64,000 nt of DNA from Liolophura sinensis. Lineage: Eukaryota > Mollusca > Polyplacophora > Chitonida > Chitonidae. The DNA lies in NCBI RefSeq assembly GCF_032854445.1, contig NC_088295.1:94109805-94173804 (forward strand), written 5' to 3'. Below, piece by piece: positions 14,652-55,400 of the stretch (position 1 is the first letter of the stretch; each line of letters begins with the position of its first letter). The translations under genes were made by a program, and so were the position numbers. The notes beneath the pieces were generated by a model, which ran no database searches, was not told the origin of the DNA, and saw only the letters and a list, made by a program, of their open reading frames with translations.

Positions 14652-14787
14652 TCAGTAGTAGGAGTTTGCGGTCTGCACAGACATACCCAGATAGATCTGT
14701 AATGCTATCAGTCCTGTACACAGCGTGAATAAGGCCTTGGCCAGCAACAACGTCCAGGAGCCCAGGCCCACAGCATGGATTAGAATC
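14652..14787 (-). CDS. TMEM147: TMEM147 exon 6 (last)
   Basis: Acceptor gtcctcag. Completes the split Glu codon, then [19 protein letters not shown] and ends SVQTANSYY-stop. A second open frame on the same DNA (14599-14817) is a shadow. Confidence 0.92.
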
Positions 14788-17700
14788 CTGAGGACAGATC
14801 AAAGATTTAATCCTCATTCGTTATGCTATGGTCTAAATGACAAGTTCTTCTACTGCCATTAAATCATTTAACCTTTACACTGAAGTCAGAGATTTTATAT
14901 CTCACACTAAGAACTAAAATAATTATGGAAAGAAATTTATTTATTTCTTTATTTGATTGATGTTTTACACTGTACTCAAGAATATTTCATTTATACGATG
15001 GTGGCCAGCATTATGGTGGGAGGAAACCAGGCAGAGCCCGGGGGAAACCCATCGCCATCAAAACACAAAAATAGGTTTGCGGGAGTTGAGTTCATAAGAG
15101 CTGATGAGCAAGATAATTGTTTGCTTAGCAGATTTGCTGATATTAAGTAAAAGGAAGTGGAATATTTCATTAAGGGTGCATAGCTCTAAAATACTATCTC
15201 ACAATCCTCATTTTCAATAGGTTTACCACTTCAGCAAACAAACGTTTCTTAAATTTGACAATCCAAGTTATACAAGATTTTGGTTTTGCGAACAGACGCC
15301 CATGAAAGCGACCTTTGCTCTGAACCAGTATTGCATGAGAATAATAATGCCACATGCCAGACTGTTGCTGTTGGCACAACATGTTATGACACAACAGGTG
15401 TATAAAATTCCAGACAAGATAGAAATGGCACATGATGACTTACTCTACTATGAGTGGCCTGAAAGATGTAAGCGCTAATAAGGACAGGACAACTGGTACC
15501 AGAGACTTCTGCAGGTCACTCCGGCTGTATAGCCAGACTAACATGGCCGTGCATATATGGTGTACCTACAACATCAACATGACACCTCTCAACAAATACA
15601 CAATCAAAATAGCAGTAGAGTTCAACCACTACCAATGTCAGAATACATATGATGAGTGATAAATTGTTTTCTCTGATGTCTAAACTAATTTCACCTGCTT
15701 CTAGCGATCTCTTTCCTAGCCTGATAAGGAAAAGTGCTGGTGGAAGCACCATCAACAAAGTGAATTCAAGATCTTCTTTGTACTCTACTGCTTTCATTTT
15801 ATTCAACTATTACACAAATAAGTGATAAAGTGTAACTTTGAGTTTGTACATTGAAGGCATCTTATTCATGTGTTGGCAGGAACTCTGTCAATGACTGGTA
15901 GTGGTCTCATATGGAATCATGCGAAAAAAATCACTGGTCATCACGGAAGATGCAGACAGGAACTAAATATTGTCATGACTTCACCAATGAAACACAGATT
16001 CCTACCTTTGGAAAGAATATATTAAAGTGAAAGACAGCGCCTGACAAATGTTTATGTCCAATGAAAGACTATCATTCAAAGAATCTTAACCCAGCATCAA
16101 ATACTTTTTTTTTAGCCAAAGTGAAAACTCTGTCTTGACACAGCTTCAACGTGCCTCCATTACCGACAGAAAGGTGATGTCAAGCTTACTCTAGCTCTTT
16201 TACCTCGAAGGTATTTTCCGAATTACAGCCAAAACAGTAGCCTAAGCTGTGAACTTCGGCGATGAAGGTCGAGGTGTTGAATAGCTTTCTTGGAAATTGG
16301 ACATGCTGGAAGGGTACTTCTTCCACTGCTTTAACTGTTGATACAGTAAGCCTGCTACATCATTTACAGTTTAAGTAGCATGCAGGTGCACGGCTGGGTT
16401 ACTCCTGGTTCAGGTCGTACCCTCTCGAGTGGTTGTGCTGGTGATTTTGAGCCCTATTGAATATTTACAAAATTACAATAGGATTGTTGTACGATTAGAT
16501 TCATGCTCAATTCTGAAACAAACGGAAATAAATCTATGCACCATTCAGTCTGATCTAGTCATCTGACTGTCACTGAAGTTTACGATTTGTGGCGGTGGTT
16601 TCTAAGATGACTGCAGAGCTGACCTAGTTATCGCAGACGTCAGAAAAACCACTCTGGCTTTAACACAGCGTTTCAATAATATTACTGTATTTTATGAAAA
16701 AAAAAACCAAAAAAAAAACCAGAAAAAAATCATTTTTTATATGCAAGAAAGACATAGGAGCAAAATCTAAATTCTTCAATTCTCACTTTAGAGAAGAAAC
16801 ATTATAGCCCTGTCATGAGATTTAATGTAAAGCATTGACCAGTGAGAGATGCCTTCTTCTCATTCCGATCAACCTACAGCATCCCCAACCAATTTTTCAC
16901 TGACTGATACTTATGCATTAGAAACTGCTGACTATGCGCTAAAATGAACGACAAAATATGTATTTATATAATCTGAACAGCGTGTCTAAGTAGGCCTAGT
17001 GTCTACTGGGAAGATGAATGCGGTTTGCGGCCAGACGGCATGCTACTGTCCGACATAATTTTCAATAACCTTGTTGAACATTACAAGGCTTGTAAATTGA
17101 CTAATTTCACATCTGTGGTGGTCCGTAAATGAGACGAGCTGTCCCACAACCCTGTGTGAAATGACCCCTTGGCTATAAGTAACCAAATCGTCGTAAACAA
17201 TCTCAAAACGATGTCTTATGAGGTAGTTCTGTGTTATCATATGTCACTTCATAGAGTGCATGGGTAATGGCTACGTCACATCTTAGGCCATGCAATCTGA
17301 TAGCAACATGTTTGATTGGATGAAAGTCTGAAGATGTCTTACCTCAATTCACACCAGTCATTTGTGCAGAACTGACATTTTGTTCTACATGTTTTTCAGT
17401 GAAATCTCATTAAAATAATAAAGTATAATACTTTGTAGAACGCTTGATAATAATCCTTTCCATCGAAATATACCTCAGCCAGGCACTGTCTTGTCCTTTA
17501 ACATATCGTGGAATCCGGTCAAAAGAATGTCACAACCACATGCTGTTTTGTCCATTATAAGCAGCTGATGTAAAAATGCATACAGGTTGTTCTAAAAACC
17601 TTTGGCAATGTGGTTTTCTTTAGAACAGATTCACACGCTATACATGAACAAAACCAGACATTTAGATCACGCTCTATAGGAGACCAGCGACGCATTTAGA

Positions 17701-20700
17701 TCACCCACTTAAGGGACCAGAGAGATATTTAGCTCATGTACTATACAAGACCAGAGAGATATTTAGATCACGTGCTACATGAGACCAGAGAGACATTTAA
17801 ATCATGCGCTATACGACACCAGAAACACATTTAGATCATGCATTATACGACACCAGAGAGACATCTAGATCATGTGCTATAGGAGACCAGAGAGACATTT
17901 AGATCATGCGCAATACAAGACCAGAGAGATATTTAGATCATGTGTTACAGGAGACCAGAGAGACATTTAGATCACGCATTATAGGAGACTAGAGAGACAT
18001 CTAGATCATGTGCTATAGGAGACCAGAGAGGCATTTAGATCACGCGCAATACAAGACCAGAGAGACATTTAGATCACGCTTTACAGGAGACTAGAGAGAC
18101 ATCTAGATCATGTGCTATAGGAGACCAGAGAGACATTTAGATCACGCGCTATACGACACCAGAGAGACATTCAGATCATGTGCTATAGGAGACCAGAGAG
18201 ACATTTACATCACATACTATAGGAGACTAGAGAAACATCTAGATCATGTGCTATAAAAGACCAGAGAGACATTTAGATCACGCCCTATACGAGACCAGAG
18301 AGACATTTAGATCACGCACTATGTGAGAACAGAGAGATATTTAAATCAGTCCAGCTGTCAATGTACAAGTAATCTACCAGCAGTTATGCATAATGATAAT
18401 TATCGTTCTATAGCAGGCATTATGGGAACCAACATCTTGTCCCAACATCTTTTGTTGATTCTTTGGATTAAGAGCAGTTATAACAAAAGTATTTGAACAC
18501 CAGTTGTGTCTCAATCAGGTCATTCTATACTCACCAGACTGACATTGGAATCAAAACTCATTAGGATGTATTTCCAATCAAACTCTATTCCACGGGCTCC
18601 AACCCACAAAGGTAAAAACCTAAATAAATAGATGTAGCAACATCAAATCTAACTGTACACTTCTCCCTCATTATAACGCTGTTGGACAAATCTTCCTATT
18701 CCGTTACAAATGCTGCATGCTATATATATACAAAACAGGAACAGATAGTGTGACAGTCCGTGGCTTTTATTAAACAATTACATAAAAGCCTCTTGAGTGC
18801 AAAGACAAAAAATATTTGCTGGAACTTTAAGTACCAATGTGTGCAACAACAGCTTGGTGCAAAAATTTGTGAAGGGGGGGGGGGGGGGGACACATGTTTG
18901 ACCATGTTACAGCATGTTGTTTCATGTTCTAATGAGAGAGAGGTGTACTATGTGGTCACAGCATCTGCTGAAGACCTGAGTTTGCAGACATGGTCAAAGC
19001 ACACACCCTTACTTTGTGAGTGAGTGAGTGAGTGAGTGCTTGGGGTTTAACATCGTACTCAACAATTTTTCAGTCATATGACGATGAAGAAATCATTAGG
19101 GTGCATGTACGTGTAATAAGCCTCCTTGTTGCAGGACGGATTTCCACCGCTCTTTTATTTAGTGCTGCTTCACTGAGACGACTTACCGAAGGCAAGTAAG
19201 CTGCCCTGCCCGAGCCATTATACTGATACGGGTCAACCAGTCGTTGCACTATCCCCTTCATGCTGAACGCCAAGCGAGGAAGTTACAACTTCCTCTTTTA
19301 AAGTCTTAGGTGTGACTCGATCAAGGATTGATCCTGGATCTACCGGTCCCGAAGCGGACACTCTACCAACTGTGCTATCCGGGCCGGTATCCCTGACTTT
19401 GTGAAAACGGTCAGTGACAACAAACAGCAGCAGGCACACTATGGTACGTGCTGCACAAATATGTCAGCCAAAAGTCAACATCTCAACAAATGGATGTTGT
19501 TGTAGCAATCTCACTTTTTTTCCTCATTGTTAGAGGCTATGTGATTGATGTAAAATTGTATCCAAGGAATATTTTCCAATAAATCTGATGTATTTATTGT
19601 TCTATTATCAGCCAATGCCCTACTCTAGAATTTTTCACTTAAACGATGGCAGTCAGTGTATAGTTGGAGGAAAATGAAGTAATCCACCCACCTTTCAGTG
19701 ACAATTCAGTGATCAACTTTACCATATGTGACACATAGGTATACGCACCATATTGGTGGAAGACACATGGTCTTCACCAGAAGACTGTGTAAACAGCCAC
19801 ATGTGCGTTGTCACCCACTTATTGCCAATAAGGCCCCCAAAGCACAGAGTCCTTAGATTTGATATGTCATGTGAGTTGAGCCATGGCCCATCCCATACTG
19901 GCATGATTGCTTACTTTATCATGATGAGTTGAGCCATGACCCATCCCATACTGGCATGATTGCTTACTTTATCATGATGAGTGCAGCCTCGGCCCATCCC
20001 ATACTGGCATGATTGCTTACTTTATCATGGTGAGTACAGCCTTGGCCCATCCCATACTGGCATGATTGCTTACTTTGTCATGGTGAGTACAGCCTTGGCC
20101 CATCCCATACTGGCATGATTGCTTACTTTATCATAGTGAGTACAGCCTTGGCCCATCCCATACTGGCATGATTGCTTACTCTGTCATGATGAGTTGAGCC
20201 ATGACCCATCCCATACTGGCATGATTGCTTACTCTGTCATGATGAGTTGAGCTGAGGCCCATCCCATACTGGCATGATTACTCACTCTGTCATGAGATGA
20301 GCCGTGGCCCATTCCAAACTGGCATGATTGCTCACTCTGTCATGATGAGTTGAGCCGTGGCCCATCCCATACTGGCATGATTGCTCATTCTGTCATGATG
20401 AGACGAGCCGTGGCCCATCCCATACTGGCATGGTTGCTCATTCTGTCATGAGATGAGCCGTGGCCCATCCCATACTGGCATGATTGCTTACTCTGTCATG
20501 ATGAGTAGAGCTGTGGCCCATCCCATACTGGCATGATTGCTTACTCTGTCATGATGAGTTGAGCCGTGGCCCATCCCATACTGGCATGATTGCTTACTCT
20601 GTCATGATGAGTTGAGCCGTGGCCCATCCCATACTGGCATGATTGCTTACTTTGTCATAATGAGTTCAGCTGTGGCCCATCCCATACTGGCAGCCATGAA

Positions 20701-23700
20701 CTTAAGCTGACCTTTGCCAGCAATCTTTGTCATGACAAAATAGAGTCCGACCAAATCCGTGAGATCTACTGTAGATTTCATGAATTCCTGGAACAGATAA
20801 ACATACACATCCTGTAGAGCTTCCCACTACAACACATTTTACATCACGCCTCTTTCCACTTTTCACATGCACAGCATTTCATTTACTTTGTTGTAACAGA
20901 AATACCATGTCATTTAAAGGATACATGACAAGGTACTATAAATAAGCTAAGAGTATGGTTTTAAAGAAAATAAAGATATACATAACCAGAAATGAGAAAA
21001 AATTTAATTTATCAGGTGTATTTTCTATTTCTTAATAATCCCAATTTTTTACATGTGTATGTGTATTTTTTTAGTTGCATTTTTCCATACATGTTTATGG
21101 CCATATTAATGCCTCAAGAAGTTGTTTTTCACACAAGCTATTCCAACCAAAAGCTATTCCAACCAAAAATCAAACTGCAAGATTATCCGCTACTTCTGTG
21201 GTGCTGTTCTTTGTGCATTATAGATATCCTGACTGACTTCATAGTGAACAGGGCAGGAAGTCTGAGCTGGACTTAATCAGAGAGCAGCTTAAAATTAATG
21301 GAGTTCAGAAGAGTCGGACAACGCCATGTTACCTTGAAGGAAATGGTATGTGCGAGAGGTTCAATCAGCCTCTGCTACATAAGCTGGGTACTCTAACAGA
21401 TAAATAAAAATCATACTGGAAAAGCTTTGTTCCTTCTCTTGTCCATGCATATAATGCTATAAGTCATGAGTCGACAGGGTACATCCCTTATTACCTGGCG
21501 TTTGGCAGGCACACTTGTTTGATCATCGATGCCTTACTAGGCACTAACCCAATGATACTGCGAAAGGCCCGAGAACACTATACGCATCTGAACTGCAGAA
21601 ACGGTCACATTGTACATAACCAGTTGAAATAAAGCATTCTACATGTCACCAGCCTGTCGTCCCAAGTTATTCCCAGCATAACGTGATACATAGAAGTACC
21701 CCATTGGTGACTTTATTAGCCACATATTCACATAACCTATTTGCCCCAACTACATGTATTGGTCTGTTTTCACATCGTGGTGAAACAGAACAATTGGTTA
21801 TTCAAGGCTTAAAACCCATAACTGATTTTTTGTTCTAGTTTTTTAAGTCAACCACCCAAATTTAATAGCTTGATAACCGTTTCTATCCTAATATTACATG
21901 AAAGTCAATCTAGCATGCTTAAAGAGCTGCTTCAGTGTCAAGATTTGTATGTCCTTAAAGCAAGCCTAGATGATATGGATCGAGATAGTTGGAATTGCTT
22001 TCTTAAATTGCAGAAAAAAAATTGTATTGTATTAAAGCCACTGTCAGTTTGGGAGAATAATACGAAAACAAAAGTTTTCTGTTGTGTCCAATTTTGCCTG
22101 TTGTGACGTCATGCAAGAACACTTGACGTCATCGATCACTGATGTACAGCCACAAAAGACATCATACTCACAAACGTACATGATGTCATTCCAGCGTAAC
22201 TGCCTTTCCAGGCGTCATATCCGCCTGATGCATCATCACACAGGGAATATTATCACCTCGCATCAGAAAAATTTTATGGGAACTGCCAAAGGTTTTGTTT
22301 TTGAGGACTTTCGCTTATAGGGGTTAAATAATGTCATTCATTAAAAAATCTTTTGAACAGTGGTGCTAACTATACTCCATGGGGCATCCTTCATATCAGT
22401 TTAATATTTCCGCCTGATCTCTCTTGCGACCAGACTAGCTCTTTAAAAGATGCCAATGATGTTGTTGTACCTGTACTACTGCTTCCCTTAGACTTGACAT
22501 GCCATTCCTGAATTCCTACACATCATGTGACGTTGTCTACTCTTTACCACCGTGTGCATCAAACACTCACCCCAACAACATCGAGACTTCCCGTCGGTAC
22601 ATCAGAGGCAGGGAAGAAGGTAGCCAACACCAACATCTTGCACAGCTGTGTGAACAGGTAGGCAGCCGCAGCCTGGGCACATTTCCAAAAGGCACTGTAC
22701 TCAGCCCTAGAATATTGTAACAACACATGACTGAATGCTCTTATCCTCTTTGTACAGAGATGTTTGTCAGTGCAATCTTTTCATCAAAGGTTTACGCCCT
22801 GGCATTCTATCACTTTACTTAAAACTGTATCTCAAACACATTCAATTATACCGGTATTTTAAAACAATCAGAATTCAATACATTTAAATACGTCTAAGAT
22901 GGTTTTATAGATGGAATTACAGTGCTCCGAATAAGCCAGACCACTGGCAAGTTGGTGATGAACTTTTCCTTTGTGTGATGTACAAAACGCGTACCATGGC
23001 CAAGGTGAAACTGGCTCTCTCGGGGTATTGCTGGGCCATTATTTGGCACATTCAAACAAGGCACCATCAGATGTGCCACAGTGCACGGAGTCCTGTACAT
23101 GGAGATATTTGGTCCTGTACACATTTGCAAGATAAAGCACCATACAAAAAACTAACTGAAATAAATCAGCTGCGGAGAGGGACAATCCACAGGTTGCTGC
23201 AGACCTTCACACATATGCCTTCGCTGGCATACTAACATCCCCGTCATGGAAGCATCGGACACCACTGTGGTTACAATAAATATAGCCCCAGGTGGCTATT
23301 TCAACCCCTCTCTTTAGACTGAGCTGGCACGGTCTCATAGCCACAGTGGCAACCAGTCATAAAATACTAGAAATAATCGTGTACCATTCCAAACCGAGTC
23401 AGAATAGTATTTTCTAAACGATGCCCATAGTCAAAGACAGGCTTCACGTTAGCCCTATGGTGATATGTTTATTAATGTGTAAATTTTAAACTTGGTGAAT
23501 GACAGATGATGTTTTTAAAGGAGAAGAAAATTTAAATATCAAACAAATACCAATGAAAAGAGTATGCATTTCCTTGCAGGTGCATGCTATAAAAAAAATT
23601 CTAATATGTACCTCAAGTTAATAAATTATAAATAAAGTCAGCGCCAAAATCCGTTGTGGGCGACTCCATTTTGCCTAAGAACTAGTCTTGAAGTCTTCTG

Positions 23701-36284: not shown

Positions 36285-37387
36285 GTGTCAGTAAGATCAG
36301 AGTCGTTATACTCTGTCATCACCTGGGATTTTTTACCTTGGGCCCATGTACAGACACCCTGTGTGTCAGTAAGATCAGGGTAACAGTCTGTTATACTCTG
36401 TCATCACCTGGGATTTCTTCACCTGGTCTCATGTACAGACACCCTGTGTGTCAGTAAGATCAAGGTAACAGTCTGTTATACTCTGTCATCACCTGGGATT
36501 TCTTCACCTGGTCTCATGTACAGACAGCCTGTGTGTCAGTAAGATCAAGGTAACTGTCTGTTATACTCTGTCATCACCTGGGATTTCTTCACCTGGTTTC
36601 AAGTACAGACAGCCTGTGTGTCAGTAAGATCAGAGTCGTTATACTCTGTCATCACCTGGGATTTTTTCACCTGGTCCCATGTACAGACAGCCTGTGTGTC
36701 AGTAAGATCAGACTCGTTATACTCTGTCATCACCTGGGATTTCTTCACCTGGTCTCATGTACAGACAGCCTGTGTGTCAGTAAGATCAAGGTAACAGTCT
36801 GTTATACTCTGTAATCACCTGGGGTTTCTTCACCTGGTCCCATGTACAGACAGCCTGTGTGTCAGTAAGATCAAGGTCACAGTCTGTTACATTCCCTCAT
36901 CACCTGGGATTTCTTCACCTGGTCCCATGTACAGACAGCCTGTGTGTCAGTAAGATCAGAGTCGTTATACTCTGTCATCACCTGGGATTTCTTCACCTGG
37001 TCTCATATACAGACAGCCTGTGTGTCAGTAAGATCAAGGTAACAGTCTGTTATACTCTGTAATCACCTGGGTTTCTTCACCTGGTCCCATGTACAGACAG
37101 CCTGTGTGTCAGTAAGATCAAGGTCACAGTCTGTTACATTCCCTCATCAGCTGGGGTTTCTTCACCTGGTCCCATGTACAGACATCCTGTGTGTCAGTAA
37201 GATCAAGGTAACAGTCTGTTATACTCTGTCATCACCTGGGATTTCTTCACCTGGTCCCATGTACAGACAGCCTGTGGTCAGTAAGATCAAGGTCACAGTC
37301 TGTTACATTCTGTCATCACCTGGGATTTCTTCACCTGGCCTCATGTACAGACAGCCTGTGTGTCAGTAAGATCAAGGTAACAGTCTG
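36285..37387. repeat. 85-bp array of the SMG9 terminal exon end
   Basis: About 13 units. On the minus strand each reads GCTGTCTGTACATGGGACCA, GGTGAAGAAATCCCAGGTGA, TGACAGAGTATAACAGACTG, TTACCTTGA, then about 20 nt of trailer. That is the last ~60 coding nt of SMG9 with a stop codon. The unit before each copy ends in CACACAG, a weak acceptor. Confidence 0.93.
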
Positions 37388-37451
37388 TTATAACTCTGTC
37401 ATCACCTGGGATTTCTTCACCTGGTCCCATGTACGGGCAGCATAATGAAAC
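37388..37451 (-). CDS. SMG9: SMG9 exon 13 (last)
   Basis: Acceptor tttgtgacag. In the conserved frame it encodes FHYAARTWDQVKKSQVMTEL-stop. The tandem copies lack one A here and read on as TEYNRLLP-stop, closer to the family's C-terminus. Confidence 0.8.
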
Positions 37452-40400: not shown

Positions 40401-43400
40401 CACAAAGGCGATTAAAATGAAATAAGTTTACTTAATCTGTCTTAGTCACCTGATTTTTACTGGGGACTTCAAAAGATTGCTTTTTTCATTTTACTTTACT
40501 CACTAACCACATAGTTCAGTACATGAGTAGGTAAATATCTTTCAAAGCTGGGGGACGTGACTAAAGAATTAAATCCTATGGACTTCCTCTATGCCAACAC
40601 TTATACAAAATGAATTGTTCTGAGGAGGTACATGTAGTCATATATGTACCGTAAGAGATTTGAAAACAACAACAAAACAATAAAAAATAGAAAGAAAATA
40701 GATCCACAAGAAACCACAAAATAGCCACAACACGTACATAAATACAAAAGGCATAATGTTCTCTGACAGCACAAGAAATCGATATACAGTACATGTCGAC
40801 CAGACAAGAACAAACACACTGTGCACATTAAAGGATCATCAAACATAGTCAATGACATGAAATTTTAAAACATACATCATGTCACTGAACAACATGCTCA
40901 GTGATTTCTGATAGGACCAGAATGTATCCACACTGGAGTCAACCCTGGACTTCACTTCCACTCACCTTTACAGCGAAGCTTAGAGTCCCTGAACGGCATG
41001 CTCAGTGATTTCTGATAGGACCAGAATGTATCCACACTGGAGTCAACCCTGGACTTCACTTCCACTCACCTTTACAGCGAAGCTTAGAGTCCCTGAACAA
41101 CATGCTCAGTGATTTCTGATAGGACCAGAATGTATCCATGCTGGAGTCAACCCTGGACTTCACTTCCACTCACCTTTACAGCGAAGCTTAGAGTCCCTGA
41201 ACAACATGCTCAGTGATTTCTGATAGGACCAGAATGTATCCACACTGGAGTCAACCCTGGACTTTACTTCCACTCACCTTTACAGCGAAGCTTAGAGTCC
41301 CTGAACAGCATGCTCAGTGATTTCTGATAGGACCAGAATGTATCCACACTGGAGTCAACCCTGGACTTCACTTCCACTCACCTTTACAGCGAAGCTTAGA
41401 GTCCCTGAACAGCATGCTTAATGTCTGTTGATAAGACCTGAATGTGTCCATGCTAAAGTCCTCCCTGGAAGCTTGGTTCTGTACAAACACTGAATGTAAC
41501 ACAATATAACTCAACATTTTCCTTGTTCTATCACATAAACAAAGTATCCACAGAGGGATTCTGGCAATGAAAAATTATTTGCTCACAAAGCTGTACTTGT
41601 ATATATGAAGTGGGCTGCAGAAAAACTGCAAAGTAATTCAAATTAGATCACATTTAAAGCTATATTGAGTCCTCGCTGGCTCATCTGGATAAAGCTGTAC
41701 TGGGCCTTTGCTGGTTCATCTGGATAAAGCTGTACTGGGATAAGATTGGTGGATTACTCTGGCAACTCAGATTCCTGGTTAAGGTTGGTAGTTTGCTCTG
41801 GGCACTCAGGTTCCTGGTTAAGCTTCGTGGTTTGCTCTGGGCCCTCACGTTCCTGCTTAAGGTTGGTGGTTTGCTTGGGGCACTCAGGTTCCTGGTTAAG
41901 GTTGGTGGTTTGCTCGGGGCACTCAGGTTCCTGCTTAAGGTTGGTGGATTGCTCTGGGCACTCAGGTTCCTGGTTAAGCTTCGTGGTTTGCTCTGGGCCC
42001 TCATGTTCCTGGTTAAGGCTGGTGGTTTGCTCTGGGCACTCAAATTCCTGGTTAAGGTTGGTGGTTTGCTCGGGGCACTCAGATTCCTGGTTAAGGTTTT
42101 CGTGGTTTGCTCTGGGCACCCACATTCCTGACTGAGGTTGGTGGTTTGCTCTGGGCACTCAGATTCCTGCTTAAGGTTTCCGTGGTTTACTCTGTGCACT
42201 CAGACTTCTGGTTAAGGTTTTCGTGGTTGCTCTGGGCAATCAGGTTCCTGGTTAAGGTTTTTGTGGTTTGCTCTGGGCACTCAGATTCCTGCTTAAGGTT
42301 GGTGGTTTGCTCTGAGCACTCAGATTCCTGCTTAAGGTTGGTGGTTTGCTCGGGGCCCTCACATTCCTGACTGAGGTTGGTGGTTTGCTCTGGGCACTCA
42401 GATTCCTGCTTAAGGTTTCCGTGGTTTACTCTGTGCACTCAGACTTCTGGTTAACGTTTTCGTGGTTGCTCTGGGCAATCAGGTTCCTGGTTGAGGTTTT
42501 TGTGGTTTGCTCTGGGCACTCAGATTCCTGCTTAAGGTTGGTGGTTTGCTCTGGGCACTCAGATTCCTGGTTAAGGTTTTCGTGGTTTGCTCTGGGCACT
42601 CAGATTCCTGTTTAAGGTTTTCGTGGTTTGCTCTGGGCACTCAGATTCCTGTTTAAGGTTGGTGGTTTGCTCTGGGCACTCAGATTCCTGGTTAAGGTTG
42701 GTGGTTTGCTCGGGGCACTCAGATTCCTGGTTAAGGTTTTCGTGGTTTGCTCTGGGCACTCAGATTCCTGCTTAAGGTTTCTGTGGTTTACTCTGGGCAC
42801 TCAGGCTCCTGGTTAAGGTTTTCGTGGTTCGCTCTGGGCATTCACATTCCTGACTGAGGTTGGTGGTTTGCTCTGGGCACTCAGATTCCTGCTTAAGGTT
42901 TCCGTGGTTTACTGTGGGCACTCAGATTCCTGGTTAAGGTTTTCGTGGTTGCTCTGGGCACTCAGGTTCCTGGTTAAGGTTTTTGTGGTTTGTTCTGGGC
43001 ACTCACATTCCTGGCTGAGGTTGGTGGTTTGCTCTGGCCACTCAGATTCCTGGTAAAGGTTTCAGTGGTTTGCTCTGGGCACTCAAATTTCTGGTTAAGG
43101 TTTTCGTGGTTTGCTCTGAGCACTCAGATTCCTGACTGAGGTTGGTGGTTTGCTCTTGGTACTCAGATTCCTGGTTAAGGTTGGTGATTTGCTCTCGGCA
43201 CTCAGGTTCCTGGTTAAGGTTTTCGTGGTTTGCTCTGGGCACTCACATTCATGACTGAGGTTGGTGGTTTGTTCTGGGCACTCAGATTCCTGGTTAAGGT
43301 TTCCATGGTTTGCTCTGGGCACTCAGATTTCTGGTTAAGGTTTTCGTGGTTTGCTCTGAGCACTCAGATTCCTGACTGAGGTTGGTGGTTTGCTCTTGGT

Positions 43401-46400
43401 ACTCAGATTCCTGGTTAAGGTTGGTGGTTTGCTCTGGGCACTCAGGTTCCTGGTTAAGGTTTTCGCGGTTTGCTCTGGGCACTCACATTCATGACTGAGG
43501 TTGGTGGTTTGCTCTGGGCACTCAGATTCCTGGTTAAGGTTTCCATGGTTTGCTCTGGGCACTCAGATTTCTGGTCACGGTTTTCGTGGTTGCTCTGGGC
43601 ACTCAGGAGCTTAATTAAGGTTTTTGTGGTTTGCTCGCGGCACTCAGATTCCTGACTGAGGTTGGTGGTTTACTCTGGGCGCTCAGATTCCTGGTTAAGA
43701 TTTCCGTGGTTTGCTCTGGGCACCCAGGTTCCTGGTTAAGGTTTTCGTGGTTGCCCTGGGCACTCTGGTTCCTGGTTAAGGTTTCCCGTGGTTTGCTCTG
43801 GGCACTCAGATTCCTGACTGAGGTTGGTGGTTTGCTCTGGGCGCTCAGATTCCTGACTGAGGTTGGTGGTTTGCTCTGGGCGCTCAGATTCCTGGTTAAG
43901 ATTTCCGTGGTTTGCTCTGGGCACCCAGGTTCCTGGTTAAGGCTTTTGTGGTTGCCCTGGGCACTCTGGTTCCTGGTTAAGGTTTCCGTGGTTTGCTCTG
44001 GGCACTCAGATTCCTGACTGAGGTTGGTGGTTTGCTCTGGGCGCTCAGATTCCTGACTGAGGTTGGTGGTTTGCTCTGGGCGCTCAGATTCCTGGTTAAG
44101 ATTTCCGTGGTTTGCTCTGGGCACCCAGGTTCCTGGTTAAGGTTTTTGTGGTTGCTCTGGGCACTCTGGTTTGTTTCCTACTGCTTCCTAAATCCATAAA
44201 CCTGACCCTATATATATTTATGAAAAATATCTTGAGGGCTTTGCTAAAAAAACACTACTATGTCCCATAGCAGACCTGAAATAAGCTACGCAAGATTGAA
44301 CAACAAAGCTACAATCTCTGAACAAGTCAGGTACAAGTCAGACAATCCCTTGCAGTTAGCAAGCACACTTATTTCAACTAGATTATTGGAAATGCAGAAT
44401 AAATCCTTTAGCTTAATCTTTCGTAAGATGCTTGTTACAGAACCAGGAAAATAACAGGATTGTGCAAACAAAACCCTCTCTTTCAATTGTCAACAACTGC
44501 TGAGGAAAATCACTGAATACAAAAAGACAGAACTCATGGTAGGAATGACAAGGATAAGTGGTGTATGGGGATAAATGGTGTTTTTGCTGCTGCATACCCA
44601 GGTGGGGGTGGTAGTCGTCAGAATCCTCAGGGTTAGACCCAGACTCCTGGCTGCTGCCTGATGGGGAGGCTGGCTTCAGCATCTCGGCTGTTAGGAGAAA
44701 CCTGTAAAAACAACAGCCCAGGGTTTGATTACCACCTCAAATATCCTCAAGTTTGTACCCTGATAGGTATTGTTTAGACACAGGTACAGATGTATTACAG
44801 GACAAGTGGTGACTGTCCATGAATGCACCCCATATTTCTAACTGGTCACTGTCCATGTATACATCCCATATTTCTAACTGGTCACTGTCCATGTAGGCAT
44901 CCCATATTTCTAACTGGTCACTGTCCATGTATACATCCCATATTTCTAACTGGTCACTGTCCATGTATGCACCCCATATTTCTAACTGGTCACTGTCCAT
45001 GTATACATCCCATATTTCTAACTGGTCACTGTCCATGTATGCACCCCATATTTCTAACTGGTCACTGTCCATGTAGGCATCCCATATTTCTAACTGGTCA
45101 CTGTCCATGTATACATCCCATATTTCTAACTGGTCACTGTCCATGTATGCACCCCATATTTCTAACTGGTCACTGTCCATGTATGCATCCCATATTTCTA
45201 ACTGGTCACTGTCCATGTATACATCCCATATTTCTAACTGGTCACTGTCCATGTATACATCCCATATTTCTAACTGGGGCATGTCCATGTATGCACCCCA
45301 TATTTCTAAACATGCCTGTACAGGCGTTTTAATTGGCCTATGACTTTACCTGAGGAAGTTGAGATCTGCAAACCAATCCTGTACCACAAGGACCACATTG
45401 CACACTGTCATCAGGAAGGCGGCCAGCTGTAATGACTACAAATGAAATCAGATTATCTTCAGCCATATGCTAAATGACCTCAAATTTTGCTCATGACTAA
45501 GCTGCACATCAGGCTACCTGATTATACCAGTGCTTTTAACACTACAGAAAGGTGATCTGAGGTTTGCAGGATGATATCGTAGCAGAAACATATAAGTTTC
45601 AGCTCCAAAAGTAATGTTGAATGATGTTTAATTGCCTCTAAAAATGTAATTTTTCAGGTGAATTTTTTTATCATTCAGGCTAACTATACATATTCTAAAA
45701 CAAAAAGAAGTTTAATGCTATAAAATCAAACTTTGCTTTTTTCACAGACTCAAGGAAAAATGTCTATTGTCTATCAACAAGCAAATATTTGTCGTGAAAC
45801 AGGTACATTGGGGCTTAACAGATTTCTCTGCGTTGTGCACGTTTAGGAGAGTGAGCCCTCCTTGACTCATATCAATAACCTTCAAATCAAGCATTCACTG
45901 ATTTGGTGATAGCTTTACTTCCGCTAGAACTCAAATACCACTGACCAGCCCCGATAGTACAGTTGGTAGAGTGTCCCCTTTGGGAGCGGTAGATCCAGGA
46001 TCAATCCTGGGTTGAGTCACACCTAAGACCTTGGCATTCAACATGAAGTGGATAGTGCAATGACTGGTTGACCAGTATCAGTATAATGGCTCGGGTGGGC
46101 AGCTTACTTGCCTTCGGTAAGGCGTTTGAGTGAAGCAGCACTAGATAGAAGAGCGGTGGAAATCCGTCCTGCAACAAGGAGGCACATTACATGCACTCTA
46201 AGGATTCCTTCATCGTCACATGACTGAAAATGTGTTTAGCTCGACATTAAACCCCAACCACTCACTCATTCCCTCAAATATCACCAGGATTTGGCACCAC
46301 AAACACCATGATGATTTGTCAACGTTTCCTTCTACAGACATCATGATGATTTGCCAGTGTTTACTTCCACGAACATCCTGACGACGTGCCAATGTTTACT

Positions 46401-49400
46401 TCTACAAATATTATGGTGATTTCCCAATGTTTACTTTTACAAATATCATGGTGATTTACCAATGTTTACTTTTACAAATATCATGGTGATTTACCAATGT
46501 TTACTTTTACAAATATCATGGTGATTTACCAATGTTTACTTTTACAAATATCATGGTGATTTACCAATGTTTACTTCCACGAACATCATGGTGATTTACC
46601 AATGTTTACTTCCACGAACATCATGGTGATTTACCAATGTTTACTTTTACAAATATCATGGTGATTTACCAATGTTTACTTTTACAAATATCATGGTGAT
46701 TTACCAATGTTTACTTCCACCAACATCATGGTGATTTGCCAATGCTTACTTTTACAAATATCATGGTGATTTACCAATGTTTACTTTTACAAATATCATG
46801 GTGATTTACCAATGTTTACTTCCACGAACATCATGGTGATTTGCCAATGTTTACTTTTACAAATATCATGGTGATTTACCAATGTTTACTTCCACGAACA
46901 TCATGGTGATTTGCCAATGTTTACTTTTACAAATATCATGGTGATTTACCAATGTTTACTTTTACAAATATCATGGTGATGTACCAATGTTTACTTTTAC
47001 AAATATCATGGTGATTTGCCAATGTTTACTTCCACGAACATCATGGTGATTTGCCAATGTTTACTTCCACAATTATCATGAGAATTTACCAAGTTTTTAC
47101 CTGCATGTGAACACAATTCTCCACGCTAGTGAATTCTGTCGGGTATTTCTTTTCATGATGGATCAGATGATCCATTACGGAGGCACTCAACACAGGCTGG
47201 TAGGGCAGAAAAACAACACCATTACAACCCACGTATAAATATATGCTTATCGGTAAGCTTATTCGAGCACCACATTGCCATCTGTGACTGACAGTTATTA
47301 TTTACTTTATTCATAACACAAATACATACATCCACTTGAACTTCATTAAACTTTATAAACATCATATTTATTAGGCATATCTATTTCAGAAATCTTTTAA
47401 TAGCCACTTGAAGTGTCATTTCATTCTATTCATATATCTCCAATGTTCAGTTTTAAAGTAAAAAAAAAAAAAAAAAAGTCATGCATTGAAACCACTAAAA
47501 ATTTTATATGGAACCTTTCCTACCTATTTATTCATAATGTTTATGATTTAAATAAATTCAATCCAAATATTTAATGACTTTCTCCAGCCTAGCACACAAT
47601 ACATGTCACCCTTTTCTGATGACCTTCACGTATCACCTGTCTGTCCAAGTAGATGATCCCCTCCCCTGTGACATATATTTGTACATGTCAATTCCTCTTG
47701 TCTGATGACCTCCACCTCCCAGCCCCTCACCTGTGTGTCCAGGTAGATGATTCTCTCCACCTGTCACACATGTCAATGCCTCTTGTCTGATGACCTTCTC
47801 CTCCCAGCCAATCACCTGTTCAGGTAGATGATTCTCTCCCCCGTCACATATGTCAATGACTCTGGTCTGATGACCTCCACCTCTCAGCCCCTCACCTGTG
47901 TGTCCAGGTAGATGATTCTCTCCCCTGTCACACATATCAATACTTACTGTCTGATGACTTCTACCTCCCAGCCACTCACCTGTGTGTCCAGGTAGATGAT
48001 TCTCTCCCCTGTCACACATATCAATACCTACTGTCTGATGACTTCTACCTCTCAGCCCCTCACCTGTGTGTCCAGGTAGATGATTCTCTCCCCTGTCACA
48101 TATCAATGCCTCTTGTCTGATGACCTCCACCTCCCAGCCACTCACCTGTGTGTCCAGGTAGATGATTCTCTCCCAAGTCAAACACATATCAATACCTACT
48201 GTCTGATGACTTCTACCTCTCAGCTACCTCACCTATGTGTCCAGGTAGATGATTCTCTCCACCTGTCACACATATCAATACCTACTGTCTGATGACTTCT
48301 ACCTCTCAGCCACTCACCTGTGTGTCCAGGTAGATGATTCTCTCCACCTGTCACACATATCAATACCTACTGTCTGATGACTTCTACCTCTCAGCTACCT
48401 CACCTATGTGTCCAGGTAGATGATTCTCTCCCCTGTCACACATATCAATACCTATTGTCTGATGACTTCTACCTCTCAGCTACCTCACCTATGTGTCCAG
48501 GTAGATGATTCTCTCCACCTGTCACACATATCAATACCTACTGTCTGATGACTTCTACCTCTCAGCCCCTCACCTGTGCCCGGGTAGATGATTCTCTTCC
48601 CGGTCACACATATCAATACCTCTTGTCTGATGACCTCCGCCTTTCAGCTACCTCACCTATGTGTCCAGGTAGATGATTCTCTCCCCTGTCACACATATCA
48701 ATACCTCTTGTCTGATGACCTCCACCTCTCAGCTACCTCACCTATGTGTCCAGGTAGATGATTCTCTCCACCTGTCACACATATCAATACCTACTGTCTG
48801 ATGACTTCTACCTCTCAGCCCCTCACCTATGTGTCCAGGTAGATGATTCTCTCCCTTGTCACACATATCAATACCTACTGTCTGATGACTTCTACCTCTC
48901 AGCTACCTCACCTATGTGTCCAGGTAGATGATTCTCTCCACCTGTCACACATATCAATACCTACTGTCTGATGACTTCTACCTCTCAGCTCCTCACCTAT
49001 GTGTCCAGGTAGATGATTCTCTCCACCTGTCACACATATCAATACCTACTGTCTGATGACTTCTACCTCTCAGCTACCTCACCTATGTGTCCAGGTAGAT
49101 GATTCTCTCCACCTGTCACACATATCAATACCTACTGTCTTATGACTTCTACCTCTCAGCTACCTCACCTATGTGTCCAGGTAGATGATTCTCTCCCCTG
49201 TCACACTTATCAATACCTACTGTCTGATGACTTCTACCTCTCAGCCCCTCACCTACATGTATGTGTCCAGGTAGATGATTCTCTCCCTTGTCACACATAT
49301 CAATACCTACTGTCTGATGACTTCTACCTCTCAGTTACCTCACCTATGTGTCCAGGTAGATGATTCTCTCCACCTGTCACACATATCAATACCTACTGTC

Positions 49401-52400
49401 TGATGACTTCTACCTCTCAGCTACCTCACCTATGTGTCCAGGTAGATGATTCTCTCCCCTGTCACACATATCAATACCTACTGTCTGATGACTTCTACCT
49501 CTCAGCTACCTCACCTATGTGTCCAGGTAGATGATTCTCTCCACCTGTCACACATATCAATACCTACTGTCTGATGACTTCTACCTCTCAGCTACCTCAC
49601 CTATGTGTCCAGGTAGATGATTCTCTCCACCTGTCACACATATCAATACCTACTGTCTGATGACTTCTACCTCTCAGCTACCTCACCTATGTGTCCAGGT
49701 AGATGATTCTCTCCCCTGTCACACATATCAATACCTACTGTCTGATGACTTCTACCTCTCAGCCCCTCACCTACATGTATGTGTCCAGGTAGATGATTCT
49801 CTCCCTTGTCACACATATCAATACCTACTGTCTGATGACTTCTACCTCTCAGCTACCTCACCTATGTGTCCAGGTAGATGATTCTCTCCACCTGTCACAC
49901 ATATCAATACCTACTGTCTGATGACTTCTACCTCTCAGCTACCTCACCTATGTGTCCAGGTAGATGATTCTCTCCACCTGTCACACATATCAATACCTAC
50001 TGTCTGATGACTTCTACCTCTCAGCCACTCACCTGTGTGCCCACGTAGATGATTCTCTCCCCTATCACACAAATCAATACCTACTGTCTGATGACCGCCA
50101 CCTCTCAGCCCCTCACCTGTGTGTCCAGGTAGATGATTCTCTCCCTTGTCACACATATCAATACCTACTGTCTGATGACCTCCACCTCTCAGCCCCTCAC
50201 CTGTGTGTCCAGGTAAATGATTCTCTCCCCTGTCACACACGTCAATACATCTTGTTTGATGACTTCCACCTCTCAGCCACTCACCTGTGTGTCCAGGTAG
50301 ATGATTCTCTCCCCTGTCACACATATCAATACCTCTTGTTTGATGACTTCCACCTCTCAGCCCCTCACCTGTGTGTCCAGGTAGATGATTCTCTCCCCTG
50401 TCACACATATCAATACCTACTGTTGATGACTTCTACCTCTCAGCCCCTCACCTGTGTGTCCAGGTAGATGATTCTCTCCCCTGTCACACATATCAATACC
50501 TACTAACTGATGACCTCCACCTCTCAGCCCCTCGCCTGTGTGTCCAGGTAGATGATTCTCTCCCCTGTCACACATATCAATACCTACTGTTGATGACTTC
50601 TACCTCTCAGCCCCTCACCTGTGTGTCCAGGTAGATGATTCTCTCCCCTGTCACACATATCAATACCTACTGTCTGATGACCTCCACCTCTCAGCCCCTC
50701 ACCTGTGTGTCCAGGTAGATGATTCTCTCCCCTGTCACACATATCAATACCTACTGTCTGATGACCTCCACCTCTCAGGCCCTCGCCTGTGTGTCCAGGT
50801 AGATGATTCTCTCCACCTGTCACACATATCAATACCTACTGTCTGATGACTTCTACCTCTCAGCCACTCACCTGTGTGCCCACGTAGATGATTCTCTCCC
50901 CTATCACACAAATCAATACCTACTGTCTGATGACCGCCACCTCTCAGCCCCTCACCTGTGTGTCCAGGTAGATGATTCTCTCCCTTGTCACACATATCAA
51001 TACCTACTGTCTGATGACCTCCACCTCTCAGCCCCTCACCTGTGTGTCCAGGTAAATGATTCTCTCCCCTGTCACACACGTCAATACATCTTGTTTGATG
51101 ACTTCCACCTCTCAGCCACTCACCTGTGTGTCCAGGTAGATGATTCTCTCCCCTGTCACACATATCAATACCTCTTGTTTGATGACTTCCACCTCTCAGC
51201 CCCTCACCTGTGTGTCCAGGTAGATGATTCTCTCCCCTGTCACACATATCAATACCTACTGTTGATGACTTCTACCTCTCAGCCCCTCACCTGTGTGTCC
51301 AGGTAGATGATTCTCTCCCCTGTCACACATATCAATACCTACTAACTGATGACCTCCACCTCTCAGCCCCTCGCCTGTGTGTCCAGGTAGATGATTCTCT
51401 CCCCTGTCACACATATCAATACCTACTGTTGATGACTTCTACCTCTCAGCCCCTCACCTGTGTGTCCAGGTAGATGATTCTCTCCCCTGTCACACATATC
51501 AATACCTACTGTCTGATGACCTCCACCTCTCAGCCCCTCACCTGTGTGTCCAGGTAGATGATTCTCTCCCCTGTCACACATATCAATACCTACTGTCTGA
51601 TGACCTCCACCTCTCAGGCCCTCGCCTGTGTGTCCAGGTAGATGATTCTCTCCCCTGTCACACATATCAATACCTACTGTCTGATGACCTCCACATCTCA
51701 GCCCCTCACCTGTGTGTCCAGGTAGATGATTCTCTCCCCTGTCACACATATCAATACCTACTGTCTGATGACTTCTACCTCTCAGCCACTCACCTGTGTG
51801 CCCACGTAGATGATTCTCTCCCCTATCACACAAATCAATACCTACTGTCTGATGACCTCCACCTCTCAGCCCCTCACCTGTGTGTCCAGGTAGATGATTC
51901 TCTCCCTTGTCACACATATCAATACCTACTGTCTGATGACCTCCACCTCTCAGCCCCTCACCTGTGTGTCCAGGTAAATGATTCTCTCCCCTGTCACACA
52001 CGTCAATACATCTTGTTTGATGACTTCCACCTCTCAGCCACTCACCTGTGTGTCCAGGTAGATGATTCTCTCCCCTGTCACACATATCAATACCTCTTGT
52101 TTGATGACTTCCACCTCTCAGCCCCTCACCTGTGTGTCCAGGTAGATGATTCTCTCCCCTGTCACACATATCAATACCTCTTGTTTGATGACTTCCACCT
52201 CTCAGCCCCTCACCTGTGTGTCCAGGTAGATGATTCTCTCCCCTGTCACACATATCAATACCTACTGTCTGATGACCTCCACCTCTCAGCCCCTCACCTG
52301 TGTGTCCAGGTAGATGATTCTCTCCCCTGTCACACATATCAATACCTACTGTCTGATGACCTCCACCTCTCAGGCCCTTGCCTGTGTGTCCAGGTAGATG

Positions 52401-55400
52401 ATTCTCTCCCCTGTCACACATATCAATACCTACTGTCTGATGACCTCCACCTCTCAGCCCCTCGCCTGTGTGACCAGGTAGATGATTCTCTCCCCTGTCA
52501 CACATATCAATACCTACTGTCTGATGACCGCCACCTCTCAGCCCCTCACCTGTGTGTCCAGGTAGATGATTCTCTCCCCGTCACAAATATCAATACCAAC
52601 TGTCTGATGACTTCTACCTCTCAGCTACCTCACCTGTGTGTCCAGGTAGATGATTCTCTCCCCTGTCACACATATCAATACCTACTGTCTGATGACTTCT
52701 ACCTCTCAGCTACCTCACCTGTGTGTCCAGGTAGATGATTCTCTCCCCTGTCACACATATCAATACCTACTGTCTGATGACTTTTACCTCTCAGCCCCTC
52801 ACCTGTGTGTCCAGGTAGATGATTCTCTCCCCTGTCACATACATGTCAATACCTCTAGTCTGATGACATCCATTTTCACGTCCATCCTTACTCTCAGGAG
52901 GAAATGTAAATGACCTGCAAAATGAAGAACAATATTAGTGAACTATACAATAAAAACAAGTTATGTGAATTATTTTTTAATCAAAAGTAATGTGTAACGT
53001 CAACTTTTACACATCTAGCATATAATCAGGTCCAGCATTAACAATGATATACTATGCATGATCCCAACACAATAACAAAATCGTTAATTTACTCCTGGAA
53101 TTCCAATATGAATAGACTGACATGTCAACTTCATGTACTTCTATGAGAGCAAATGAACAGATGAGCATGTAAAATATACGCGCAATGCTTACATTTACAC
53201 ATAGTTAAGCTTTGTCAGGGGCCTCTGTGGCTCAGTTGGTTAGCGCGCTAGCGCAGCATAATGACCCAGGAGTCCTCACCCCTGCGGTTGCTGTGAGTTC
53301 AAGTCCAGCTCATGCTGGCTTCCTCTCTGGCCGTACATGGGAAGGGCTGCCAGTAACCTGTGGATTGTCATGGGTGTCTCCTGGCCACCATAATGCTGGC
53401 CGCTGTTGTAGTGAAATATTCCTGAGTGCAGAGTAAGACACCAATCAAATAAATAAATAAATTAGGCCTTGTCATAGCCCCAAAATGCAGGTCCATGAAA
53501 GGAGAGATGAAATCTGTAAAACACTGGGTTTCCCATTCTATATTTTTTAATGTCAGCACAGATTAGATTCTGCTGTGTGGCCTTCACAGACTTCACAGAT
53601 CTCCTTACCTGGGAGAGTCAGATGTAGAATTCCCCACAAGAAGAGAGAGGAGTGTAGATTTCCCCACCCCTTGCAAGCCCACAACACCAACCACCAAGTA
53701 ATCTGTTTGATCCAGGAGCATCTGCATTAAACAGAAAAAATCAAATCTATAAATGATTATCAAAAAATTATGGAAAATTATATTTTCTGGAATCAAAATG
53801 TCAATAAAAAGTTCAAACTATAAAAGTTGTATCAGAATGAAATAGAAGTCAAGCATTTTGACATGCTTAATTCCCCCTTCATCCTATCTCCATATCTGTG
53901 TCACACCACCTACCTCCATGCCTGTGTCACACTTCTGTCAGGGTAACCTACCTCCATGCCTGTGTCACACCACTGTCAAGGTTACCTACCTCAATGCCTG
54001 TGTTACACCGCCATCAGGGTAACCTACCTCAATGTATGTGTCACACCACTGTCGGGGTAACCTACCTCCATGTCTGTATCACACCATTGTCAGGGTAACC
54101 TCCCTCAATGTCTGTGTTACACCACCATCAGGGTAACATACCTCAATGTATGTGTCACACCATTGTCAGGGTAACCTACCTCCATGTCTGTATCACACCA
54201 TTGTCAGGGTAACCTCCCTCAATGTCTGTGTTACACCACCATCAGGGTAACCTACCTCAACGTCTGTGTCGCACCACTGTCAAGATAACCTACCTCCATG
54301 TCTCTGTCACACCAATGTCAGGGTAACCTACCTCCATGCCCGTGTCACACCACTGTCAGGGTAACCTACCCCCATGCCCGTGTCACACCAATGTCAGGGT
54401 AACCTACCTCCATGTCTGTGTCACACCACTGTCAGGGTAACCTACCTCCATGCCCATGTCACACCACTGTCAGGGTAGCCTACCTCCATGCCCGTGTCAC
54501 ACCACTGTCAGGGTAACCTACCTCCATGTCTGTGTCACACCACTGTCAGGGTAACCTACCTCCATGTCCGTATCACACCACTGTCAGGGTAACCTACCTC
54601 CATGCCTGTGTCACACCACTGTCAGGGTAACCTACCTCCATGCCCTGTCATACCACCATCACGCTAACCTATCTGCATGCCTGTGTCACACCAATGTCAG
54701 GTAACCTACCTCCATGCCCGTGTCACACCACTGTCAGGGTAACCTACCTCCATGCCTTTATCACACCACTGCCAGTTCTCATCCACCAGTTTCACAGAGC
54801 CTTGTACGTCCGGGAGGTTCAGAGGCCGGCTTGATTGTGCTCCTGTATGGATGGACAAAATGCTCAGGAATACCAGGCAGTCAGAAGTGTATAAGATGTG
54901 TAGAATATATTTTGATCAACTATACAAGGTTTTCTAATACAAGGTTTATAGCAAACCTGATGTGTCAGTTCTTATGGAAGATGTTTTTGCTTACTATTTT
55001 GCACTTGATACTTAATCAAATTTAGTGTGTTAACATCTCCACAATCAATCTCTATTTGTCTATTTCTGGTTTAGCCTGATTCTGCAAAGGGCAGTAATGT
55101 GTTGATTCTGTTATGAGTAACGTGTGTCTTCCTTTGCCTGATTAAATTATGAGTATATTGTGCCTATAAAGTGTGGTTTTGCTTGATTGTGTTATGAGTA
55201 TATTGTGCCTATAAGGTTTAACTTTGCTTGATTGTGTTATGAGTATATTGTGCCTATAAGGTGTAGTTTTGCTTGATTCTGTTATGAGTATATTGTGCCT
55301 ATAAGGTGTAACTTTGCTTGATTGTGTTATGAGTATATTGTGCCTATAAGGTGTAGTTTTGCTTGATTCTGTTATGAGCATATTGTGTCTATAAAGTGTG

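What the first reader, a model, noticed from the sequence alone, without database searches (positions are those of the whole stretch)
14652..54842. Tandem arrays seeded from exon 3' ends and their splice donors, in two genes
Six arrays are made of the end of a host exon plus its 5' splice donor and a few intron bases, running from the true donor downstream: SMG9 exons 4, 6, 10, 12 (and the terminal exon with its stop) and TMEM147 exon 3. TMEM147 exon 4 and SMG9 exon 7 are probable further cases. Units differ completely in sequence and length (34-104 bp), so this is not one satellite spreading. Something about the exon/donor junction itself appears to start amplification. Possible consequences: dozens of decoy 5' splice sites per intron, U1 recruitment that protects long introns from premature polyadenylation, or a mechanism such as R-loop- or replication-slippage-driven duplication at donors. 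I know of no described satellite class defined this way.
Basis: partly seen in the sequence, partly recalled or inferred. Interest (0 to 1): 0.93.

Follow-up and report, generated by a model that had tools for sequence, protein, structure and literature searches.

The report
Splice-donor-seeded minisatellites in a chiton
In this chiton genome about one sampled exon in fourteen is followed by a tandem array copied from its own end and splice donor, more often than chance placement gives and more often than at the other end of introns; similar "mirage" repeats were known from a few lancelet genes.

Summary
Five arrays in SMG9 (exons 4, 6, 10, 12) and TMEM147 (exon 3) are made of an exon end plus donor, starting at the real donor. 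A sixth copies the last coding stretch with its stop and has no donor. Assembly size, scaffold number and longest scaffold match the published Liolophura chiton genome. In 200 conserved exons fetched genome-wide, the exon end with donor matches its downstream array at 14 exons, the exon start with acceptor its upstream array at 3. Fourteen of 53 downstream arrays hold at least 8 exon bases against 3.6 expected from uniform placement; upstream 3 of 43 against 3.5. So donors are favoured, although the second sample alone (40 exons) gave 1 and 1. The kind is not new: lancelet "mirages" are tandem repeats of exon-intron boundaries. New, as far as searched, are the mollusc, the frequency and the donor bias. 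Decoy donors are no better conserved than the rest of their units, so no function is supported. Best reading: neutral local tandem duplication, born unusually often at donors and tolerated because the first donor stays in use. Why donors are hot is unknown.

The parts
19865..20692 (-). Array of 53-bp units = about 42 bp of TMEM147 exon 3 end + donor + 11 bp intron; real donor GT at 20650
   Evidence: own donor-window score 124, best of 160 foreign windows 22
20651..20787 (-). TMEM147 exon 3 (source exon)
   Evidence: homology, splice sites set
53883..54775 (-). Array of 38-bp units = 28 bp of SMG9 exon 4 end + donor + 10 bp intron; real donor at 54747; GT kept in 19 of 22 decoys, 16 of 22 score at least as high as the real donor
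   Evidence: score 97, foreign maximum 23
47683..52872 (-). Array of about 61 units of 84 bp = 70 bp of SMG9 exon 6 end + donor + 14 bp intron; real donor at 52802; GT kept in 51 of 60 decoys, 33 of 60 score at least as high as the real donor
   Evidence: score 142, foreign maximum 25
40881..41450 (-). Array of 104-bp units = about 69 bp of SMG9 exon 10 end + donor + 35 bp intron; real donor at 41381
   Evidence: score 135, foreign maximum 22
37810..38488 (-). Array of about 44-bp units with SMG9 exon 12 end + donor and a CA-rich intron part; real donor at 38458
   Evidence: score 87, foreign maximum 21
36279..37441 (-). Array of 85-bp units copied from SMG9 last coding exon (first base 37451) including its stop codon and following sequence; no donor
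46299..47096 (-). Array of 35-bp units in SMG9 intron 7; unit matches intron bases from +1 of the donor at 47100, no exon part
   Evidence: score 28, foreign maximum 25; 33 against 33 with milder penalty; alignment shown
17656..18348 (-). Array of 34-bp units in TMEM147 intron 4, about 185 bp after the donor at 18534; weak match to exon 4 end, perhaps an old donor array
   Evidence: p 0.019 / 0.006
41741..44166 (-). SMG9 intron 9 array (about 41/80 bp) starting about 430 bp after the donor; not clearly exon-derived
   Evidence: p 0.037 / 0.056
44807..45309 (-). SMG9 intron 8 array (36 bp), 40 bp after the donor at 45349; not exon-derived
   Evidence: p 0.34 / 0.61

Best explanation
These are gene-specific minisatellites of the 'mirage' kind in a chiton. 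A short stretch spanning the end of an exon and its splice donor is duplicated in tandem in the DNA. The extra copies fall into the intron and are then multiplied by slippage or unequal exchange, so the array runs downstream from the real donor. The real exon copy stays intact under selection. The copies evolve neutrally and carry many intact decoy donors, tolerated because splicing keeps using the first, exon-proximal donor. Births are not uniform along introns: the exon/donor junction is hit about four times as often as uniform placement predicts, while acceptors are hit at the expected rate. Shown here: the arrays, their source, the donor excess, and no sign of selection on the decoys. Inferred: the duplication mechanism, use of the first donor, and that the excess lies in birth rate rather than in survival.
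For: Exon-donor units in five window arrays. Genome sample of 200 exons in 72 gene clusters: 14 donor and 3 acceptor exons by the automated rule. Arrays holding at least 8 exon bases: 14 of 53 downstream against 3.56 expected (P printed as 0.00000 from 200,000 simulations) and 3 of 43 upstream against 3.53. On average the real exon lies as close to the decoy consensus as the decoys do (0.946 against 0.930 over 13 arrays, p 0.41), as expected if it is the source and the arrays are fairly young. Donor position within the unit does not differ from uniform (19 arrays, some lengths read by eye, KS p 0.21), so no fixed cut site. Donor bases are conserved like the rest of the unit (p 0.52, 12 arrays). 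A published survey finds that with long flanking introns the splice sites closest across the exon are preferred (PMC9225289, abstract), which predicts tolerance of donor copies.
Against: The second sample alone shows no bias (1 donor, 1 acceptor of 40). The size of the excess depends on the background used: 11 at the boundary against 2.3 or 5.1 per point from the two flanks (Poisson p 3e-5 to 0.015). The match threshold of 30 was set after seeing the scores, although the next own-window scores are 19 or lower. In single arrays the exon is an outlier (SMG9 e10: 0.855 against 0.989; L090: 0.864 against 0.901), and in L041 none of 3 decoys keeps GT. Exons came from five gene families only. No RNA data, no second chiton genome and no reads were available.
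Confidence: 0.7

Rival explanations
1. Plain chance in an array-rich genome: tandem duplications fall anywhere and some land on exon ends; coding constraint merely forces them to run into the intron.
For: About 10% of sampled bases near exons and 47% of the window lie in arrays; most arrays of sample 1, 55 of 72 unique ones, are not exon-derived; acceptor overlap equals the uniform expectation; sample 2 alone gives 1 and 1.
Against: Donor overlap is 14 against 3.56 expected although exon overlap should be selected against; a coding/noncoding rule alone predicts donor and acceptor alike.
Confidence: 0.15
2. Selection filter: duplications arise equally at both exon ends, but acceptor copies are removed because splicing prefers the upstream 3' site, while donor copies are harmless.
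For: 14 against 3 of 200; general preference for upstream 3' sites in a published survey (PMC9225289, section 9); donors with arrays tend to be stronger (medians 10.07-10.11 against 8.46-9.25, p 0.011-0.068 by threshold).
Against: Acceptor overlap is at, not below, the uniform expectation and donor overlap is above it; a filter can only lower counts. The same section says the upstream 3' preference is significantly reduced when introns are long. It may still act together with a donor hot spot.
Confidence: 0.2
3. Functional arrays: the many decoy donors recruit U1 and protect long introns from premature polyadenylation, or regulate splicing of these genes.
For: Dozens of intact donors in some arrays: 51 of 60 in SMG9 intron 6 keep GT and 19 of 22 in intron 4.
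Against: Donor bases are not better conserved than the rest of the unit (p 0.52); outside SMG9 e6, GT is kept in 98 of 112 decoys where 93.6 are expected from the decay of the rest of the unit.
Confidence: 0.07
4. Survival ratchet: arrays anchored on an exon cannot collapse back to one copy because recombination with diverged copies would damage the exon, so they live longer.
For: Explains an excess without a mutational hot spot; donor arrays are longer in view (432 against 244 bp, p 0.009), though region ends cut many. In SMG9 e10 and L090 the exon is an outlier from its decoys.
Against: It predicts donor arrays older than others and the exon generally an outlier; percent match is equal (91.5 against 90, p 0.52) and over 13 arrays the exon sits with its decoys. 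It should also favour acceptors.
Confidence: 0.12
5. Assembly artefact of repeats.
For: Coverage is only 14x HiFi, so copy numbers of the longest arrays may be inexact (PMC11068029, passages).
Against: HiFi mean read 8,347 bp exceeds the longest array here (5.2 kb); sampled donor arrays show 73-754 bp within the fetched stretches.
Confidence: 0.03

Closest known systems
"Mirage" minisatellites of lancelets (Adh3, globins BflGb6 and BflGb9, TnC, PGBD5)
   Same: [quoted passage not shown] units vary in length between genes; many copies keep splice signals; both boundaries can be involved (passages of PMC3087553 and PMC3902484)
   Different: A mollusc instead of a cephalochordate; counted here in a genome-wide sample (14 donor, 3 acceptor of 200 exons); one array of about 61 copies; donor bias. 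Splicing accuracy and length polymorphism, reported for lancelets, were not tested
[quoted passage not shown] potato RdRp case)
   Same: Tandem duplication carrying splice signals; in potato one duplication crosses an intron-exon boundary (abstract of PMC4974935)
   Different: The next acceptor is not part of the unit in the four donor arrays where it was tested (p 0.62-0.81), so the array did not make the intron; many copies instead of one duplication
Dual-specific splice-site arrays of polyubiquitin
   Same: Tandem array of AGGT sites within a gene (abstract of PMC10809524)
   Different: There the repeats are coding ubiquitin monomers and are spliced; here they are intronic

Membership tests
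Mirage minisatellites | Tandem units span an exon-intron boundary | tested here: met
   5 window arrays; 14 donor and 3 acceptor exons of 200
Mirage minisatellites | Minisatellite unit length, variable between genes (10-160 bp in the passage read) | tested here: met
   30-125 bp basic units in 19 arrays (some read by eye); SMG9 and TMEM147 donor units 38-104 bp
Mirage minisatellites | Many copies keep AG/GT splice signals | tested here: met
   149 of 172 decoys keep GT in the 15 arrays analysed
Mirage minisatellites | Regular splicing of the mRNA is not disturbed | not testable with these tools
   No RNA data for this genome
Mirage minisatellites | Length instability between alleles or cells | not testable with these tools
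   One assembly, no reads
Mirage minisatellites | Occurs in cephalochordates | tested here: not met
   Assembly matches a chiton: 632 scaffolds, longest 96,433,062 bp exactly, 609.46 against 609.50 Mb. This is where the kind was described, not part of its structure
Intron gain by tandem duplication | Both splice sites of the intron derive from the repeated unit | tested here: not met
   The next acceptor window does not match the unit in the four donor arrays where it was tested (TMEM147 e3, SMG9 e4, e6, e12; p 0.62-0.81); SMG9 intron 10 was not tested
Introners / dispersed satellite | The same sequence recurs in many genes | tested here: not met
   A 401-bp piece of the TMEM147 array matched only its own array (3 matches, one place) in the genome search (that search skips very common words); the other units were compared by eye only

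The most novel reading that the evidence does not exclude
Splice donors are mutational hot spots in this genome because of splicing or transcription itself (for example nascent RNA held at U1-bound donors and forming RNA-DNA hybrids), so that a splicing-coupled duplication process lengthens introns genome-wide from their 5' ends.
Probability: 0.2. Interest if true: 0.88.

Novelty: new variant of a known kind. Interest (0 to 1): 0.62.

Why it matters
If about 7% of conserved exons (14 of 200 sampled) carry an array born at their donor, tandem duplication at splice donors is a major source of intron growth in this chiton, and many such arrays put strong decoy 5' splice sites beside the true one. 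That is a natural experiment for two open questions: what makes exon ends prone to duplication, and how the spliceosome picks the first of many equal donors. It also takes a curiosity of a few lancelet genes to a distant phylum and gives it a rate and a direction.

Tried and rejected
Donor motif as the sole seed: rejected, since 55 unique arrays of sample 1 outside donors and acceptors show no excess of donor-like sites on the sense strand (mean best score 2.49 against 2.05 antisense, p 0.28).

R-loop cause by G-richness: donor arrays have GC skew +0.17 against +0.02 for the others, but exons with arrays are no more skewed than exons without (0.10 against 0.07, p 0.87). Left open, not supported.

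Fixed cut distance from the donor: intron parts lie at 9-35 bp in 16 of 19 arrays, but the donor position within the unit does not differ from uniform (KS p 0.21). Not claimed.

Survival ratchet: I expected the real exon to be an outlier from the decoys; over 13 arrays it is not, so I demoted it.

Stronger donors at arrays: p 0.007 first, then 0.011-0.068 with donors set by the same automatic rule. Suggestive only.

Errors mended: the script stopped on a repeated motif; donor positions were one base off for SMG9 e10 and for SMG9 e6, mended. The automatic donor was wrong for L041, L115 and L112 and was reset by eye. An earlier count said about 32% of the window is in arrays; one search gives 47%.

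Literature: the founding lancelet Adh paper is not held, so it is known here only through passages of PMC3087553 and PMC3902484. An earthworm metallothionein paper was checked (passages); the passages do not describe exon-end units.
Full report
WHERE IT IS. The window is G000:C1:94109805-94173804. The genome has 609,464,459 bases in 632 contigs and C1 is 96,433,062 bases long. The published chiton assembly has 609,495,693 bases, 632 scaffolds and a longest scaffold of 96,433,062 (PMC11068029, passages). It was built from PacBio HiFi (14x, mean read 8,347 bp) and Omni-C. It was named Liolophura japonica and later corrected to L. sinensis (PMC12441733, whole text). The names of the two genes rest on matches to solved SMG9 (E 2.7e-45) and TMEM147 (E 9.9e-65). 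Both run on the minus strand.

OBSERVATION. Splice sites were set from homology and consensus for 16 donors and 16 acceptors of the two genes (SMG9 exon 11 was read but not tested). Twelve of the larger arrays lie in or at the end of these genes; very short TRF rows were left out. Against each array's repeated consensus, the donor window of the preceding exon scores 124 (TMEM147 e3), 97 (SMG9 e4), 142 (e6), 135 (e10) and 87 (e12), where the best of 160 foreign windows scores 21-25. SMG9 e7 scores 28 (foreign maximum 25) through intron bases only, and 33 against 33 with a milder mismatch penalty. TMEM147 e4 is borderline at 18 (p 0.019, or 0.006 with the milder penalty). SMG9 e9 is marginal (0.037, 0.056). 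Three arrays do not match (25173-25256, 44807-45309, 55132-55458). The twelfth, at the terminal exon, copies coding sequence with the stop codon and has no donor. The window test is not independent, because the finding was picked for it.

GENOME SAMPLE. Sample 1: 40 of 57 TCP1 rows, 60 of 118 kinesin, 50 of 76 myosin and 10 of 14 SMG8 rows, each match with 620 bases on either side. Sample 2: 32 of 37 adaptin rows and 8 further kinesin rows with 790 bases; some of those 8 lie beside sample 1 exons, so parts of their flanks had been fetched before. Rows were taken mostly in E-value order with at most one in-frame stop; intronless copies were left out, and at least three rows that fitted (C1:72009835, C6:9124231, C8:53412069) were also left out by hand. 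Total 200 non-overlapping exons in 72 gene clusters. An array between two sampled exons is counted once for each (for example L015/L019, L048/L193, L184/L186).

RESULT. Sample 1 holds 43 arrays downstream and 35 upstream of the exon; 63 of 160 stretches have one. The own donor window matches the array consensus at score 30 or more, better than every foreign window from other contigs, for 13 exons (14 arrays, L154 having two); the own acceptor window does so for 2. There is a gap between 18 and 32 in the donor scores, but the threshold was set after seeing them. Crossed controls: no upstream array reaches 30 with the donor window, and one downstream array (L015) reaches exactly 30 with the acceptor window because its unit begins in that same exon. 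Sample 2 holds 10 and 8 arrays; 1 donor and 1 acceptor exon match. Together 14 and 3 of 200, two-sided binomial p 0.013; by gene cluster 13 and 3, p 0.021. One further donor case, L041, was missed by the rule because the Pfam match ended early, and was read by eye. For one counted case, L085, the donor itself is uncertain; without it p is 0.021.

IS IT MORE THAN CHANCE? If array edges fell uniformly over the flank plus one unit, 3.56 of 53 downstream arrays would hold at least 8 exon bases; 14 do (L041 included, L124 not), with P printed as 0.00000 from 200,000 simulations. Upstream 3.53 are expected of 43, and 3 are seen. A profile in sample 1 says the same: the first unit covers the donor 11 times against a mean of 2.3 at +150 to +450, while the acceptor is covered twice against 5.1. 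Against the larger background the Poisson p is only 0.015, against the mean of both 0.0016. So donors are enriched; the factor lies between about 2 and 5.

ANATOMY. In 19 arrays (4 of the window, 15 of the samples, some lengths read by eye) the exon part is 9-115 bp and the intron part 9-79 bp, and the donor position within the unit does not differ from uniform (KS p 0.21). Median period is 73.5 against 44.5 bp for other arrays (p 0.005), which longer units would give by chance of overlap; percent match and copy number do not differ. Reading on past the real donor meets a stop soon: the frame of TMEM147 exon 3 ends ELIMTK-stop and that of SMG9 exon 6 LDTQVRG-stop, so use of a decoy there would truncate the protein.

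DO THE DECOYS MATTER? In SMG9 intron 6, 51 of 60 decoys keep GT and 33 score at least as high as the real donor; in intron 4, 19 and 16 of 22 (a simpler cut gave 17). Over the 15 arrays analysed 149 of 172 keep GT; in L041 0 of 3 and in L090 12 of 17 do. Donor bases are not better conserved than the rest of the unit (12 arrays, p 0.52), and outside SMG9 e6 GT is kept in 98 of 112 against 93.6 expected from the unit's own decay. On average the real exon lies among its decoys (0.946 against 0.930 identity to their consensus, 13 arrays, p 0.41), with SMG9 e10 (0.855 against 0.989) and L090 (0.864 against 0.901) as exceptions. This fits neutral copies of recent to moderate age whose source is the exon, and gives no sign of selection for or against the decoys.

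MECHANISM. Tandem duplication in DNA is inferred from contiguous exon and intron bases in each unit; a spliced RNA source would lack the intron bases. Growth downstream follows from the exon having to stay intact. Tolerance is inferred from a published survey of splice-site choice: with long introns the sites closest across the exon are preferred (PMC9225289, abstract). For 3' sites the survey reports a general upstream preference that is reduced when introns are long (section 9), so a filter against acceptor copies is plausible but not strong. Such a filter cannot raise donors above the intron background, so a donor-biased birth rate is the simplest addition. Its cause is open: the motif alone is not sufficient, exon G-richness does not separate the groups, and donor strength gives a weak hint (p 0.011-0.068).

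KNOWN KIND. Lancelet "mirages" are tandem repeats of exon-intron boundaries, reported for Adh3, globins, TnC and PGBD5, at either boundary, without disturbed splicing in the cases the authors cite (passages of PMC3087553 and PMC3902484). By structure the chiton arrays belong to that kind. Searches for "mirage" with minisatellite and amphioxus, for "mirages" with exon, intron and tandem, and for tandem repeats or duplications with introns, splice sites, molluscs or chitons showed me no listing that describes such arrays outside lancelets, apart from single boundary duplications such as the potato case (PMC4974935, abstract). Most of those listings were seen only as titles and abstract starts, and the library lacks most subscription papers.

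Noticed in passing
L154 (C9:33245590-33246943) and window 36279-54775: SMG8, the partner of SMG9 (role recalled), also carries a donor array; both are nonsense-mediated-decay factors. Unrelated genes show the same, so probably coincidence.
   Followed up: partly
L045, L131, L181: Three acceptor-side arrays whose units hold the end of the intron, AG and the exon start.
   Followed up: partly
window 36279-37441: An array copied from the last coding exon including its stop codon, extending into the 3' side; coding ends without a donor can also seed arrays.
   Followed up: no
window 3252-12438, 29896-35043, 58260-63361: Large arrays outside the two genes; their gene context was not worked out. The larger TRF arrays make up about 47% of the window.
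   Followed up: no
window 400-651 (-): Open frame with a Kazal-type inhibitor domain (Pfam PF07648, E 3.4e-8).
   Followed up: no
C5:5566404-5567579, C6:7942446-7943372, C6:10740029-10741498, C1:79678218-79679165: Long uninterrupted or nearly uninterrupted TCP1/Cpn60 and adaptin frames in the genome searches, which look like intronless copies or intron-poor genes.
   Followed up: no
L053, L110, L122, L136, L143: Several upstream arrays stop just short of an acceptor without including it, as if arrays may approach but rarely cross acceptors.
   Followed up: no
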